From an uncultured Bacillota bacterium (GTDB taxonomy: Bacteria > Bacillota_I > Bacilli_A > RFN20 > CAG-826), in NCBI GenBank assembly GCA_949289845.1, contig CASEPN010000001.1, positions 306,887 through 370,886 of the forward strand: a stretch of DNA of 64,000 nucleotides. Direction: 5' to 3'. Numbering within the stretch: the first letter of the stretch is position 1; each line of letters begins with the position of its first letter. Below the pieces are notes generated by a model. It did not search any database. It was not told the origin of the DNA and was given only the letters and a program-made list of their open reading frames with translations. The translations under genes and the position numbers were made by a program. Positions 6,094-62,391 of this stretch are shown here, piece by piece.

Positions 6094-6270
6094 CCCGCGG
6101 AAGGTTCGTTTGGGGGGGGTATGAACTTTTTTCGGATGTTTCTCCTCCCGAATGAGGATTACGGATAAAAGGGGAGGGATTTGCGGGATATCCGATTCAC
6201 GCGCTTCCGATACCCTGCCGCCTTCCTCTTCTGGAAGGCTCCGGTTGTCGCAAGGGGCGCTCCTGCCCGC

Positions 6271-53596: not shown

Positions 53597-53606
53597 GGCC
53601 CAGGGG

Positions 53607-53631
53607 GGGGACGGGGATCCGTCCCCTTTTT
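53607..53631 (+). terminator. rpmF terminator
   Basis: Perfect 8-bp stem GGGGACGG / CCGTCCCC with a GGAT loop followed by TTTTT. Confidence 0.92.
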
Positions 53632-57074: not shown

Positions 57075-57251
57075 ATGGCTGTGAAAGTCGTGATCCGTCC
57101 GGACGAGACGGTCGACGAAGGGATGCGCCGCTTCAAGCGCGCCGTCAACAAGTCGGGCATCGTCATGGAGAAGAGGAAGCGCGAGTACTACCTCAAGACC
57201 GCCCTCCGCCGCAAGCAGAAGAGCGAGATGGCGCGCCGCAAGAAGTGGTAG
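57075..57251 (+). CDS. rpsU: 30S ribosomal protein S21
   Basis: 58 residues. The start AVKVVIRPDETVDE and the Arg/Lys-rich C-terminus (ALRRKQKSEMARRKKW) are typical of bS21. The ribosome site AAGGAGGTGAG is near-perfect. In Bacilli rpsU follows mtaB; here rpmF, deoC and three surface-related genes intervene. Confidence 0.95.
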   Translation: MAVKVVIRPDETVDEGMRRFKRAVNKSGIVMEKRKREYYLKTALRRKQKSEMARRKKW

Positions 57252-57371: not shown

Positions 57372-57965
57372 ATGGGCAAGAGGCGCTTCGGAAATAGGAT
57401 TCGGGGGGGGTTCTTCCTAGGGCTCCTCGCCCTTAGTTCCCTATCCCTTGGCTTTGCCGCTTGGGTCGTCCCGATCCAGGGGGTCGCCCAGGACGTCGGG
57501 CTCGAGGCCTCCTTCGGGGCGACGAGCACCCTCAGCTTCCTGAGGTTCGGTACGCCCGAGGTCCCCTACGTATACCAGGACTCCTCTTCCTCCTGCTTCG
57601 TCATCAAGGAGGATTCCTTCGAAGAATCCTCCCTGATCCGCGTCCCTTTCGTCATCGACCACCGCCTGGCGCACGCCGGGGGATACGTGGACGAGGAGAA
57701 CGCGGTGAGGCTCCGCTTTTCCTTGGAGGGGCCTACCTCCTTGGAAGGGATTGATAATCCTCCCGTGGCGCGCTCCAACGTCTCGACGTACCTCTTTTCC
57801 GCGTCTTCCTTTGGCGAGAACGCTCTTGTTTCCGAAGGATCAGTCAGCCTTCTGAGCGACCAGGCGGCAGGGGAAAGCAGTTACGCTCTGGAATACACCG
57901 TCCATGACGAGGCTGCGCGGATCCTCCTTGAAGGAGGGATTTCCCTCGAGGCATACGCCCTATGA
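57372..57965 (+). CDS. Small exported protein at the head of the Hint cluster
   Basis: 197 residues from ATG 57372 (a TTG at 57366 is possible). A basic start (GKRRFGNRIRGG) and one hydrophobic helix (about 12-32) form a signal or anchor that ends near AAWVVPIQG. The rest is predicted beta-rich and acidic (SSCFVIKEDSFEESS, ARILLEGGISLEAYAL), somewhat like small surface or fibre subunits of Gram-positives. No named family. The stop overlaps the start of the Hint protein (ATGA), so the two are made together. A companion or assembly subunit of the large surface protein is inferred. Confidence 0.65.
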   Translation: MGKRRFGNRIRGGFFLGLLALSSLSLGFAAWVVPIQGVAQDVGLEASFGATSTLSFLRFGTPEVPYVYQDSSSSCFVIKEDSFEESSLIRVPFVIDHRLAHAGGYVDEENAVRLRFSLEGPTSLEGIDNPPVARSNVSTYLFSASSFGENALVSEGSVSLLSDQAAGESSYALEYTVHDEAARILLEGGISLEAYAL

Positions 57966-60900
57966 GGAAGCGTTCGAAGATTCCCTTCCTGGTCATGAGC
58001 GGGGCGGCGCTCCTTGCCCTTAGCTTCACGGCGTACTCCACCTACCTCCTCGTGAACGGAGAGGCATCCTCTTCCTTTCCTGTTCCCAAGAAGAAGGAAA
58101 GGGTCTGCTACATCACGAGCGACGGCGGCGCGACGAAGACCTACTACACGGACATCGGCAAGGCCATCTCCGTCTCCAGGAGCGGCGAGACGATCGTCGT
58201 TCTTCCTCATGTCGACAAGGACGGGACCTACGACATGGTCATCGACGGGCAATATGCCTCGAACGGGAAGCTCACGATCCCAGAGGGAGTAACCTTGTCC
58301 CTTCCCTACCAGGTTTCCTCCGACGGGCTGGACACCCCGGTGGCGAATTCGAAAGTGGCGGCAAAGAAGACTTCCACCCACGCCTTCCGCGACACCACCG
58401 GGAAACTCATGAAAAGCCTCGTCGAGATTGCCGAGGGCATCACCTTGGAGAACCGCGGCACGATTGAGATCGGAGGACTTCTTGGCGCCGGTGGCGGAGG
58501 CGAGACCAGCGGAGCGACATACGCGGACTATGCGGCGATTTCCCTCGGGAAGGGGGCAAGCCTCGTGTCCTATGGCCTTATCAACGCCTACGGGCTCATC
58601 ACCGAGAAGACGGAGGGGACCGCGGCGGTCGTCCTCGAGCCAACTGCCGATCTCTGGCTCCCCATGTGCTGGAACGACTTCGGGGGAGGCTCTGCCCTTA
58701 CCGGAATCTACAAGGGCATCGAGAGCCACGACACCCAGTGCCTTCCCTTGGACGACTTCTATTTCGAGAACGTCGAGCCGCTTATCCGAATAAAGGGAGG
58801 GGCCGAGGTCAGCTCCTGGGTCAACATCTACATCACGTTGCTCCAGAAATTCGACGCTTCCCCCTTCGCGGAGTATGACATGAAGATCATCGGGGCCCAG
58901 GGGGACAGCTCCGCGATCGTCTCGATCCCGGAGGGCAGCTACCTTGAGTCCGACTATTCCTACGAGAAGAGGACCTACCAGCAGGCCGCCGTGGACGGGG
59001 TCACGCCCCTTCCGGTGGAAGGAAGCGTCCCCGATCCCAGGCATGAGCTAGATTTCTATGGGGACGCCACGTTCAACGCCCTCGCGATCAACGTCGAGCA
59101 GGCGGCCCACGACGCCGGAGCGGGCGATCTTTATAACATCGGCGCGCCAATCGTCGGCATTCCGGAAGTCGTGTCCACCGACGAGGGATATTTCCCCATC
59201 TCGCATGTCTTCCACATTTCGCTGAACCCGCTCCCTGGGAGTGCCTCCGCTCGTTTCGACGGGAGCGACACAAGGTACAAGCTCATGTCGGGATCCTCCC
59301 TGGAGATTGCCGAGGGCGCTACGCTCGAGGCGCTGTCTCTCGTCGCCTACGACGGCACCGACTACCTGACCGAGAGGAATGGTTCCGTCCTTGGCACGAA
59401 TGGCGCGGTCATGGCGAAGAGCGGAGACTGGAAGAACTGGGTGAAGGTCCCGGCGGTGGCTATCGTGAACGGCGCTCTCAGCGCAGGCACTGTCGCAGGA
59501 TCCTTCGAGACCACGACAACCGGGGCTAGGCTATCCGCCCTTTCCTCCACGAACGTGACGATGCAGGAGCCGCTTTCCGTGGATTCCAACGAAGTCACGA
59601 TTCCAGTAGTTGGCATAACCATCCCTAGGCCTGAACTGGCGTCTTCCAAGCCAATGCCGCTGAATCTGAAGCTAAGGGAATCGAGCATGTCCTTTACCGA
59701 CCGTGGAGCTGGAGGCTACGACTCCTTCTATCTTCCGGGATATGAGCATGGCTTCTGGCCGGATCCCCTGGTCGTTTCTTGTTCGGGCGGCAACAAGACC
59801 GCCCCTGGCTCTTCGGGAACCTTCTCCTTGAGCGCGACTTCCGGTTTCGACGGCATGGTTCCCGTGGGAGCGAGCCTTCGCTACGAATGGGATGCTCCCG
59901 AGGGCTGCTCCGTTGTCTCTTCCGGCGCAAGGGGGGAGACAGCATCCCTCACCATTCCGGCGAACTTCTTTTCCGGATCGGACCTTTCCTACACGATCTC
60001 TTGCCGGGCGGTTCTTTCTTCCGAGGAAGGGGCGATCAGCCTTTCCGGCACCTATGATCTCCTCTCGGCGCCTGTCGAGGTCAAGGTTGCCTATGACCCT
60101 GCGAATACCGATCCTAGAGAGTCCGAACCTTCTTGGAGTCTAGGGACCAATTGGAACTATGACGTCTCGGATTGGAATTCCTTCGCGTCGTCCTCCGGTG
60201 TTTCCGGAGAACTCGAGGATTATGCCAGCTATGCATGGAAGCATAAGGACAATAGTGGGGTGAGTACTAATTGGAATGTAGCCTTCAGCGACGCAAGCTC
60301 GCCGACGCCAACCCTTTCGATGAAGAGGGGAACTGCGAATATATCCACTGACGTCAGCGCCTCTATCACCATCAATATCCCGAGTAAGCCATCCTTCTCC
60401 CTCGCCACCGATACGGTCACGTTCCGCGCCAGCGGGTGCCTTGGCGGAGACACGGTCATCTACATGGCCGACGGGGAACGGAAACGGCTCCGGGACATCC
60501 GCAAGGGCGATAAGGCGCTGTCCTTCGACCATGAGAGGGGTAGGCTGGTCGAACGCACCGTCATCCTCCTCATCCGGCGGCACGCACAGGTCGACCGCCT
60601 TGTCATGGAGTTCGAGGACGGGACGCGGATCGTCGCCTTGCAGTCGCATGCCCTATTCGACCTGGACAAGTCCAAATACGCCTATATCAGCTCCGAAAAC
60701 GGAACGGCCCTCGTCGGCCATCGTTTCGCTGCCCTCAGGAATGGTTCCCTTGTTCCCTTGAGGATGGTTTCCTTCCGAGCGGAGAGATCGGCGGAAGACC
60801 TCTACGACATCGTCACGGAGGAGACGCTGAACTATTTCGCCGAGGGGGTGCTCTCGATCACGAGCGACCTTGCCATCACCCAGAATGCGTTCCGCTTCCG

Positions 60901-61099
60901 CGAAGGGACCGCCTGCTTCGACACGGAAGCACGGGCGGAGGACATCAGGTGCCATGGCCTATGGCGGGCTGAGGAGTGGTCTTCCCTTATCGATAAAGAA
61001 TGCTTCGCCGCTTTCGCGATCGCCTACATGAAGGTGGGTGCCTCGAAGGGGCTATACCCAAGGTCCTTCATCGAGGGCCTGATCGACGACTTTGTTTGA
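57962..61099 (+). CDS. Large exported protein with C-terminal Hint autoprocessing domain
   Basis: 1045 residues. A signal or anchor helix (about 8-32) is followed by a long beta-rich region (about 45-600) with EIAEGATLE-type repeats typical of beta-solenoid or adhesin domains, then an Ig/PKD-like segment (about 600-720) with RYEWDAPEG. A Hint domain starts at Cys826 (SGCLGGDTVIYMADG, then RDIRKGDKALSFD), has the conserved His in LQSHALF (about 899-905) and ends near about 966 (LYDIVTEETLNYFAEGVL). About 80 residues follow, with several Cys/Trp. The intein-type C-terminal Asn is missing, so hedgehog-like cleavage at the Gly-Cys bond is expected, not splicing. The part at 60070-60420 is less GC-rich than its neighbours. 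Confidence 0.8.
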   Translation: MRKRSKIPFLVMSGAALLALSFTAYSTYLLVNGEASSSFPVPKKKERVCYITSDGGATKTYYTDIGKAISVSRSGETIVVLPHVDKDGTYDMVIDGQYASNGKLTIPEGVTLSLPYQVSSDGLDTPVANSKVAAKKTSTHAFRDTTGKLMKSLVEIAEGITLENRGTIEIGGLLGAGGGGETSGATYADYAAISLGKGASLVSYGLINAYGLITEKTEGTAAVVLEPTADLWLPMCWNDFGGGSALTGIYKGIESHDTQCLPLDDFYFENVEPLIRIKGGAEVSSWVNIYITLLQKFDASPFAEYDMKIIGAQGDSSAIVSIPEGSYLESDYSYEKRTYQQAAVDGVTPLPVEGSVPDPRHELDFYGDATFNALAINVEQAAHDAGAGDLYNIGAPIVGIPEVVSTDEGYFPISHVFHISLNPLPGSASARFDGSDTRYKLMSGSSLEIAEGATLEALSLVAYDGTDYLTERNGSVLGTNGAVMAKSGDWKNWVKVPAVAIVNGALSAGTVAGSFETTTTGARLSALSSTNVTMQEPLSVDSNEVTIPVVGITIPRPELASSKPMPLNLKLRESSMSFTDRGAGGYDSFYLPGYEHGFWPDPLVVSCSGGNKTAPGSSGTFSLSATSGFDGMVPVGASLRYEWDAPEGCSVVSSGARGETASLTIPANFFSGSDLSYTISCRAVLSSEEGAISLSGTYDLLSAPVEVKVAYDPANTDPRESEPSWSLGTNWNYDVSDWNSFASSSGVSGELEDYASYAWKHKDNSGVSTNWNVAFSDASSPTPTLSMKRGTANISTDVSASITINIPSKPSFSLATDTVTFRASGCLGGDTVIYMADGERKRLRDIRKGDKALSFDHERGRLVERTVILLIRRHAQVDRLVMEFEDGTRIVALQSHALFDLDKSKYAYISSENGTALVGHRFAALRNGSLVPLRMVSFRAERSAEDLYDIVTEETLNYFAEGVLSITSDLAITQNAFRFREGTACFDTEARAEDIRCHGLWRAEEWSSLIDKECFAAFAIAYMKVGASKGLYPRSFIEGLIDDFV

Positions 61100-61206
61100 T
61101 GCCGTCTCCCAGGATGGGTGAGTACAAGTTCGAGCGGTTTCCCAAGGACTTGGTCAGTATTTTCGCGTTTCAAGGGCACTATTGCGTTCTCCTTCCCTAT
61201 AACTAG
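61099..61206 (+). CDS. Possible 35-residue peptide between Hint and C39 genes
   Basis: The ATG overlaps the stop of the Hint gene (TGATG). A second in-frame ATG at 61114 would give 30 residues. The product is amphipathic with one Cys (ends HYCVLLPYN). The stop is TAG at 61204-61206, just after the next gene's -10 box. It could be a substrate or pheromone-like partner of the peptidase, but there is no double-glycine leader and chance cannot be excluded. Confidence 0.3.
   Translation: MPSPRMGEYKFERFPKDLVSIFAFQGHYCVLLPYN
61198..61203 (+). promoter_or_regulatory. -10 box before the C39 gene (leaderless type)
   Basis: TATAAC, then 6 nt, then ATG at 61210. This gives the peptidase its own predicted leaderless transcript. 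Confidence 0.5.
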
Positions 61207-61209
61207 GTC

Positions 61210-62391
61210 ATGGATGCCACGGTCTACCAGCACGGGGAGGGGGAGTGCGGCTATGCCGCCCTCCGTTCCTTCCTCATCCTCCTGACGGGAAGAGGGGGGT
61301 GGAAGTATCTCCCCCGTCCCAAGGAAGGGCCTCTTGACCTCGAGTGCCTTTCCCGCATGGCCGCGGAGGCCGGGGTGTCCCTCGTCTGGAAGAAGGCTCA
61401 CTACAAGGGCGCTCTCCTCGAGAATCCCCGCCTTCCGCTCCTCCTTCTCCTTGAGGAGGGAAGCCGTGGCCATCTCATCGTCCTCCGGAAGAAGAAAGGG
61501 GACCGTTTCCTCGTGGAAGACCCCGCGAAGGGCAGGTCATGGGTTAGAGGGAAGGACCTGCTTTCCTCCTGGAACCTCGTCTTCGGGGAAGGGGAGCTTC
61601 TCGAGGAAAGGGAACCGCCCAGGAGAAGAAGGCTCCAGGACCCCTTCGAGATGCCGTTGCTCCTGGCGATGCTCACCCTCGAGCTCGCCCTGCTGATGCC
61701 AGGACTTTATTTCCTTCAGGAGGACCCGCGCCTCTTCTACGCGATCCTCTTCCTCTCGCTTTCGCTTTTCGCCCATCTCCTCCGGGAGGGGCTCTCCCAT
61801 TATTTCCTCCTTCGCTTCGACAGGAGGAACCTCCCGCTTCTCAGGAAAGGCTCCCCTCCGGAGGACTTCCTGTTGTACCAGAAGGCCAAGTCCTCCCTGA
61901 CAAGAGGGCCGATGCATCTTCTTTCCTCGATCCTCGTCGCGCTCGTCCTTTATCTATATCTCGCCCTGGATTCCCCGGGCTTCGCCCTTGCCGGAGGGAT
62001 TGTCCTTGTCCTGGAGGGGCTTTATCTTCCCGTCGCCGCCCTTCTCCGGAAAGAGGAAAGGAAGCTCGAGGAAGTAGAGCTCCCTCTTCTCCGGAAGCCC
62101 TATGACCCCGGGCGCGGGAAGAAGGCGTCCGTGATGGCGCACTCCCTCGCCCTTAAGTTCCGCCTCCTCGGGGCCCTTTCCTACGTACCGCTCCTCCCCC
62201 TTTCCTTCCTCTCCCTATGGGGCTATGAGGAAGGGGGATTCCCGCTCCTTGTCTCTTCCTTCCTCTCCCTCTTCCTTCTGGCCCGTTCCTTCCGCCCCGC
62301 GCTCCGCTTTCCCTTCTATAAGGAAGAGAGGAGGCGCCTTCTCGACGCCTTCCACGAGCGCTTCCTCTCCCTTCCTTCCCGGGATTGGTAG
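61210..62391 (+). CDS. C39-type peptidase with membrane domain, no ABC ATPase
   Basis: 393 residues. The N-terminal domain (about 1-125) has the full peptidase C39 layout: Gln7 (oxyanion), Cys13 in GECGYAALRS, His88 in GHLIVL and Asp104 in VEDPAKG. Five or six membrane helices follow (about 150-360). Unlike bacteriocin exporters, the chain ends without Walker motifs, and the next gene is ybeY. C39 domains normally cut after Gly-Gly in secreted leader peptides. Here it lies beside a Hint protein, so it may trim that protein or a partner at the membrane. An ATPase encoded elsewhere could complete a transporter. Confidence 0.75.
   Translation: MDATVYQHGEGECGYAALRSFLILLTGRGGWKYLPRPKEGPLDLECLSRMAAEAGVSLVWKKAHYKGALLENPRLPLLLLLEEGSRGHLIVLRKKKGDRFLVEDPAKGRSWVRGKDLLSSWNLVFGEGELLEEREPPRRRRLQDPFEMPLLLAMLTLELALLMPGLYFLQEDPRLFYAILFLSLSLFAHLLREGLSHYFLLRFDRRNLPLLRKGSPPEDFLLYQKAKSSLTRGPMHLLSSILVALVLYLYLALDSPGFALAGGIVLVLEGLYLPVAALLRKEERKLEEVELPLLRKPYDPGRGKKASVMAHSLALKFRLLGALSYVPLLPLSFLSLWGYEEGGFPLLVSSFLSLFLLARSFRPALRFPFYKEERRRLLDAFHERFLSLPSRDW

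What the first reader, a model, noticed from the sequence alone, without database searches (positions are those of the whole stretch)
57372..62391. Three-gene surface module: exported subunit, Hint autoprocessing protein, ATPase-less C39 membrane peptidase
A small exported protein, a 1045-residue exported protein ending in a hedgehog-type Hint domain (Cys826, late His, no C-terminal splice Asn) and a C39 peptidase joined to membrane helices but not to an ABC ATPase lie side by side. The first two are translationally coupled. Two different self- or leader-cleaving activities in one locus suggest staged maturation of a surface or released effector: Hint cleavage could free or lipid-modify the large N-terminal part, and C39 could process a partner. 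I know of no described system with this exact composition.
Basis: partly seen in the sequence, partly recalled or inferred. Interest (0 to 1): 0.85.

Follow-up and report, generated by a model that had tools for sequence, protein, structure and literature searches.

The report
Switchable surface operon with self-cleaving tail
In an uncultured gut bacterium, two adjacent genes for exported proteins, one ending in a predicted self-cleaving Hint domain, carry a run of G bases that probably switches them on and off at random; the neighbouring C39 peptidase gene is an unrelated core gene that merely sits next door.

Summary
The sequence observation holds: a small exported protein (57372-57965), a 1045-aa exported protein ending in a Hint domain (Cys826) and an ATPase-less C39 peptidase (61210-62391). 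The "three-gene module" does not. The C39-membrane gene is core in this order (236 of 279 genomes), lies upstream of (ybeY-)cdd-era in all 28 relatives inspected, and adjoins this operon in only three genomes. The real unit is the first two genes, a start/stop-overlapping pair recurring in many genera. Two features were missed. (1) A run of 8-11 G lies in gene 1's signal-peptide codons in 13 pairs (G8 here, in frame; 10 of 12 relatives out of frame or truncated) and in the promoter spacer in two more: 15 runs in 45 pairs against 0.22 expected (P 8e-23), the signature of a phase-variable contingency locus. (2) The Hint carries a conserved ~75-residue helical C-terminal module and lacks the His-Asn splice motif; an 86%-identical relative ends just before the Cys826 position. 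Most likely this is a phase-variable exported protein pair whose large member sheds its C-terminal fifth by Hint thioester chemistry. Switching, cleavage and function are inferred, not shown.

The parts
57372..57965 (+). Gene 1 (P0001, 197 aa): signal peptide (helix 11-29, ...SLGFAAW) and a predicted beta-rich domain (residues 52-197)
   Evidence: fold matches only weak (Z <= 7.3)
57403..57410 (+). Poly-G tract G8 inside the signal-peptide codons of gene 1; in frame (ON) at this length
   Evidence: same position G8-G11 in 12 relatives; P 8e-23 over 45 pairs
57962..61099 (+). Gene 2 (P0002, 1045 aa): large exported protein; start overlaps gene 1 stop by 4 nt
57962..58033 (+). Signal/membrane segment of P0002 (residues 1-24)
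   Evidence: sequence; predicted helix 8-24
58094..59371 (+). Conserved beta-rich region of P0002 (residues about 45-470), shared by Hint-bearing and Hint-less family members; right-handed beta-helix inferred
   Evidence: beta-helix is inference from strand pattern and sequence, not from a fold match
60437..60871 (+). Hint domain, residues 826-970; Cys826 codon 60437-60439, His896 codon 60647-60649
   Evidence: Cys 86/86, His 82/86
60872..61096 (+). Conserved helical C-terminal module, residues 971-1045 (N.F...YD..DI.KYGL.TYE....YLKV..GKGL.T.E.I); position like the ARR/SRR of Hog proteins
   Evidence: Gly999 86/86; no Pfam family
61210..62391 (+). Neighbour, not part of the module: C39 peptidase fused to an ABC-exporter-type membrane domain without ATPase; order-wide core gene

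Best explanation
Genes 1 and 2 (57372-61099) form a phase-variable two-gene operon for exported proteins. Step 1 (strong comparative evidence, switching itself not observed): slippage in the G8 tract shifts the frame of gene 1 inside its signal peptide, so gene 1 is made only at some tract lengths; gene 2, whose start overlaps gene 1's stop, is switched with it by translational coupling (inferred). Step 2 (inferred from fold and conserved residues): after export the Hint domain of the large protein makes a thioester at Gly825-Cys826; attack by water or another nucleophile releases residues 1-825 as the mature surface or secreted protein and discards the Hint plus its helical C-terminal module. 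It does not splice. Step 3 (open): whether the new C-terminus is left free or joined to an acceptor through the helical module. The C39 gene next door is an independent core gene of the lineage.
For: Pair conserved: a small exported protein just upstream (gap mostly -26 to +11 nt, often ATGA) of the large protein in most of about 45 loci across several families of the order. Tract: 13 pairs with G8-G11 at the same place in the signal-peptide codons, 2 with the tract between TTGACA and TATAAT/TATATT. Of the 13, in frame with a full gene 1: window, L035, L123; out of frame or truncated: 10. 15 tracts in 14.4 kb against 0.22 expected, P 8e-23; 0 in the matching region of gene 2. Tract-bearing loci span 25-63% G+C. 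Only 9 G>=8 runs exist in the whole 1.3-Mb genome, others being in DNA methyltransferase genes and promoter spacers. Hint: Cys1 86/86, block-B His 82/86; fold Z 18-20 to Hint structures. The G026 ortholog (86% identical) ends ...TVTFKAG*, just before the Cys position; three further family members end after a final strand with no Hint.
Against: No within-population tract-length variation could be examined; the genomes are mostly MAGs, and out-of-frame tracts could in part be consensus errors or decay. 30 of 45 pairs have no tract, so phase variation is frequent, not universal. The block-B Thr of inteins/hedgehog is not conserved (Leu893 here). Gene 2 has its own signal and could start independently, so coupling is not certain. 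Surface location, cleavage and function are unproven. The gene 1 fold is uncertain (pLDDT 74).
Confidence: 0.68

Rival explanations
1. Polymorphic-toxin type: the Hint domain acts as a pre-toxin protease that frees a C-terminal effector, as proposed for some MafB proteins of Neisseria.
For: Some MafB proteins place a Hint domain before a C-terminal toxic domain (PMC7738311).
Against: The part after the Hint is a conserved ~75-aa module in 86 distinct sequences, not a variable toxin; no conserved immunity-like gene follows in the loci listed; some family members simply lack it.
Confidence: 0.08
2. Three-gene module as proposed: C39 and Hint proteins process each other or a common partner.
For: The three genes are adjacent here and in G018 and G026; the C39 triad is intact.
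Against: C39-membrane gene in 236/279 genomes and upstream of (ybeY-)cdd-era, mostly without a Hint gene nearby; 5 Hint-bearing genomes have no C39 match.
Confidence: 0.04
3. The operon is decaying: frameshifts at G runs are pseudogene mutations or assembly errors, and the Hint is a relic.
For: 10 of 13 tract-bearing copies are out of frame or truncated; a Hint remnant with stops exists in G022 (L070).
Against: Lesions sit at one site, beside an otherwise long open frame; about 2/3 out of frame is what random tract length gives; tracts occur in AT-rich genomes and also in promoter spacers of the same operon; Hint Cys is 86/86.
Confidence: 0.1
4. Bacterial Hog-like ligase: the helical module presents an acceptor (lipid, wall polymer, amine, or the gene 1 product) to the thioester, anchoring the protein covalently.
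For: Hint followed by a conserved 75-aa helical module in the position of the SRR/ARR (PMC2362128, PMC7242414); Asp/Glu at Hint position 46 in 47/86; no anchor motif or membrane segment apparent at the C-terminus of P0002.
Against: The window protein has Ile, not Asp, at the aligned position 46; Hint-less members exist; no acceptor known; P0002 could be held by an uncleaved N-terminal segment.
Confidence: 0.2

Closest known systems
B-type bacterial intein-like (BIL) domains
   Same: Hint fold, N-terminal cleavage chemistry, C-terminal splice motif missing, found in variable non-conserved bacterial proteins (PMC7765530)
   Different: Here followed by a conserved helical module and located at the extreme C-terminus in most members; part of a two-gene phase-variable operon
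Hog domain (Hint + SRR/ARR) of hedgehog and nematode hedgehog-related proteins
   Same: Hint followed by a helical region of similar size at the C-terminus of an exported protein; fold Z 18.8 to 1at0
   Different: No detected sequence relation of the helical module; position-46 Asp not kept in this protein; acceptor unknown
BIL2 domain of Tetrahymena BUBL1 (6y75/6tmm)
   Same: Closest solved relative by profile (4e-12) and fold (Z 20.2)
   Different: 6y75 is an N143A mutant, so the native domain has a C-terminal Asn; different protein context
Poly-G phase-variable surface genes of Neisseria and Campylobacter
   Same: Homopolymeric G tract within the ORF giving reversible on/off switching (PMC3786947 for HmbR/HpuAB); tracts in promoter spacers are known too (own knowledge)
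   Different: Different phylum and different proteins; the tract sits in the signal-peptide codons of the first gene of an overlapping pair
PCAT peptidase-containing ABC transporters (PCAT1, ComA)
   Same: C39 domain and, by profile, part of the transmembrane domain
   Different: No ATPase domain in the members aligned or inspected (about 390-450 aa)

Membership tests
Hint superfamily | Residue-1 Cys and Hint fold | tested here: met
   Cys826, 86/86; Z 18.8-20.2 to hedgehog and BIL structures
Hint superfamily | Block-B TxxH motif | tested here: inconclusive
   His896 conserved 82/86; Thr position is Leu here and mostly Ile/Val
Intein (splicing) | C-terminal His-Asn followed by Cys/Ser/Thr | tested here: not met
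   Block F/G end lacks His-Asn
BIL type A | C-terminal His-Asn | tested here: not met
BIL type B | Intein N-terminal motifs kept, C-terminal motif absent, in variable proteins | tested here: met
BIL type B | N-terminal self-cleavage | not testable with these tools
   needs expression
Hog domain (hedgehog type) | Asp (or His) at Hint position 46 | tested here: not met
   Ile871 aligned at 46 in the window protein; Asp 33 and Glu 14 of 86 in the family
Hog domain (hedgehog type) | C-terminal adduct/sterol recognition region | tested here: inconclusive
   A conserved helical 75-aa module is in that place; no homology or acceptor shown
Phase-variable contingency locus | Unstable repeat at the 5' end of the ORF or in the promoter, beyond chance | tested here: met
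   15 tracts vs 0.22 expected, P 8e-23; frame states differ between relatives
Phase-variable contingency locus | Tract length varies within a population | not testable with these tools
   one genome per species, no reads
PCAT transporter | C39 with catalytic residues | tested here: met
   C13/H88/D104 invariant, Q7 nearly so
PCAT transporter | ABC ATPase domain in the same chain | tested here: not met
   ORFs about 390-450 aa, no nucleotide-binding domain matched
SipW/TasA-type export | SipW-type signal peptide and SipW-like peptidase | tested here: inconclusive
   SipW-like peptidase (TIGR02228) in the genome; GFSSW-type signals by eye; no NCBIfam signal model matched
Polymorphic toxin (MafB-like) | Variable toxin domain after the Hint | tested here: not met
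   C-terminal module conserved in 86 sequences

The most novel reading that the evidence does not exclude
A bacterial Hog-like system: the Hint thioester is resolved onto a cell-surface acceptor recruited by the helical module, giving sortase-independent covalent attachment of a large surface protein, and the whole pair is switched by a poly-G tract in the signal peptide of its partner.
Probability: 0.2. Interest if true: 0.9.

Novelty: new variant of a known kind. Interest (0 to 1): 0.62.

Why it matters
Poly-G phase variation is best known from Neisseria, Campylobacter and similar pathogens. Here the same logic appears in uncultured gut Bacilli with genomes near 1.3 Mb, on an operon whose large protein carries a Hint tail. 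The Hint plus helical module recurs in many gut Firmicutes, including the named strain Pumilibacter muris CLA-AA-M08, so both the switching and the fate of the Hint thioester can be tested. If the helical module passes the thioester to an acceptor, it would be a bacterial counterpart of hedgehog autoprocessing and a new anchoring route. It also removes a false lead: the C39 gene is a neighbour, and an order-wide ATPase-less C39-membrane protein is an open question of its own.

Tried and rejected
C39 as a module member: rejected by synteny and distribution. Double-glycine leader in gene 1 as a C39 substrate: the Gly-Gly comes from the poly-G tract and is missing in tract-less relatives, and no typical leader motif is seen. 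Prepilin-type signal: the residue pattern after the Gly does not fit. Toxin release: the C-terminus is conserved. Known family for gene 1: none in Pfam or NCBIfam; fold search gave only common beta-sandwich matches (CBM3, pilin domains, diphtheria toxin receptor domain; Z <= 7.3), not significant. Beta-helix of P0002: no fold match listed, as Hint hits filled the list, so it stays an inference. First genome-contig query with alignment A1 failed and was redone with A3. Literature searches found no account of poly-G phase variation with Hint proteins of this kind.

Full report
What is there. Gene 1 (57372-57965) encodes a 197-aa exported protein, gene 2 (57962-61099) a 1045-aa exported protein, and 61210-62391 a 393-aa C39 peptidase with membrane helices. 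Upstream lies an S21-like ribosomal protein gene (57075-57251, identified by eye) and downstream ybeY, cdd and era. Pfam finds Hint at residues 819-904 of gene 2 (5e-7) and C39 in the third protein (1.5e-6).

The C39 gene is a neighbour. A profile of its family finds it in 236 of 279 genomes of the order, 43 of 56 genera, as one ORF of about 390-450 aa in most matches listed. In all 28 relatives inspected it stands upstream of (ybeY-)cdd-era, usually directly. The catalytic residues are kept, and the profile aligns to the C39 and transmembrane parts of PCAT1 structures but no ATPase follows. It adjoins this operon only in this genome and in G018 and G026; in G030 a Hint gene lies about 6 kb away. 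Of 48 Hint-bearing genomes, 43 have it, close to the 85% seen overall. So it is an ATPase-less relative of peptidase-containing transporters with its own conserved job, not part of this unit.

The real unit is the gene pair. The large protein belongs to a family with a conserved N-terminal part and, usually, the Hint. Its genes lie directly behind a small exported gene, often with the ATGA overlap, at many sites in several families of the order. A second pair exists in the same genome (L034:3474-7225). Gene 1 proteins share a signal ending in GFSSW-like residues and then a fast-evolving beta-rich domain. A SipW-like signal peptidase is encoded in the genome.

The G tract. In several relatives gene 1 looked cut short, and the break was always at a run of G in the signal-peptide codons. 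The window has G8 at 57403-57410, in frame. The same place holds G8-G11 in 12 relatives. In frame with a full-length gene 1: window, L035, L123. Out of frame: L046, L050, L055, L058, L060, L067, L119, L120 (pair at 2957), L134. L054 also carries a further stop and is counted as truncated. In two relatives of other families the run lies between promoter boxes: L051, TTGACA and TATAAT; L063, TTGACA-aaatac-G11-TATATT. In 45 pairs the 5' region holds 15 runs against 0.22 expected from base composition, P 8e-23, and the matching region of gene 2 holds none. Tract-bearing loci range from 25% to 63% G+C. The whole genome has only nine runs of G8 or more; others lie in cytosine methyltransferase genes (L109, L111) and in TTGAAA...TAYTCT spacers before a restriction-helicase-like gene (L107) and another gene (L104). 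One such promoter has G10 here and G8 in relative G018 (L040). This is the pattern of a phase-variation system, though switching was not observed.

The Hint and its tail. The predicted Hint (826-970) has pLDDT about 95 and superposes on BIL2 of Tetrahymena (Z 20.2), hedgehog (Z 18.8) and a clostridial BIL (Z 18.2). Over 86 distinct sequences Cys1 is invariant, the block-B His is kept in 82, the Thr is not, and the C-terminal His-Asn is missing. The domain can therefore be expected to cleave at its N-terminus but not to splice, like B-type BIL domains (PMC7765530). Behind it comes a conserved helical module of about 75 residues with Gly999 invariant and no Pfam name. Its place matches the SRR/ARR of Hog proteins (PMC2362128; SRR length 50-100 residues, PMC7242414). 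Position 46, the Asp used by hedgehog (own knowledge; 6tyy is the D46H mutant), is Ile here and Asp or Glu in 47 of 86.

A natural comparison. In G026, 86% identical, the large protein stops at ...TVTFKAG, just before the Cys826 position, and C39 follows 126 bp later. L047, L065 and L071 also end after a final strand without a Hint. The N-terminal part is evidently a complete protein without the Hint, provided these Hint-less genes are functional. In G018, flanking DNA is 84-93% identical while the large protein is only 42% identical, so parts of the gene are exchanged or diverge fast.

Spread. The Hint plus helical module occurs in 48 of 279 genomes of the order and in many Clostridia MAGs, Anaeroplasma and Pumilibacter muris, there mostly in other architectures. 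The P. muris copy also has a G9 run in a promoter spacer (L165).

Verdict. Best reading: a phase-variable two-gene operon for exported proteins whose large member is matured by Hint cleavage. Shown: pair conservation, tract enrichment and frame states, Hint fold (predicted) and conserved residues. Inferred: switching, coupling, cleavage, surface location. Open: what attacks the thioester, and what the proteins bind.

Noticed in passing
61210-62391; loci L195-L214: Order-wide core gene: C39 peptidase plus ABC-exporter-type membrane domain without ATPase, upstream of (ybeY-)cdd-era in all 28 relatives inspected; function unknown.
   Followed up: partly
L109:1501-1509, L111:1501-1508, L039:1127-1135: Runs of 8-9 G/C inside cytosine DNA methyltransferase genes, suggesting phase-variable methylation.
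   Followed up: partly
L104:1501-1510, L107:1501-1509, L040:10215-10222: Poly-G in promoter spacers (TTGAAA-N5-6-Gn-TAYTCT) before a restriction-helicase-like gene (L107) and others; a related promoter has G10 in this genome and G8 in G018.
   Followed up: partly
window 6112-6119: G8 run upstream of a calcineurin-like phosphoesterase gene; may be another promoter tract.
   Followed up: partly
window 53603-53610: G8 run just after a small ribosomal-protein-like gene; looks like part of a terminator stem, not a switch.
   Followed up: partly
L165 about 4475 (Pumilibacter muris): G9 between TTGACA and TATAAT just before a 732-aa Hint protein gene with no evident signal peptide.
   Followed up: no
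L070:6383-6793 (G022): Degenerate Hint remnant with stop codons, a decayed copy.
   Followed up: no
L116 (G000:C2 about 81.9 kb): G8 upstream of tandem exported proteins with GFSAW/GFSTW signals, with a weak SipW-like hit about 4 kb away.
   Followed up: partly
L035:6108-9182 against window 57962-61099: Large-protein genes in near-identical surroundings (84-93% DNA) are only 42% identical, pointing to allele replacement.
   Followed up: partly
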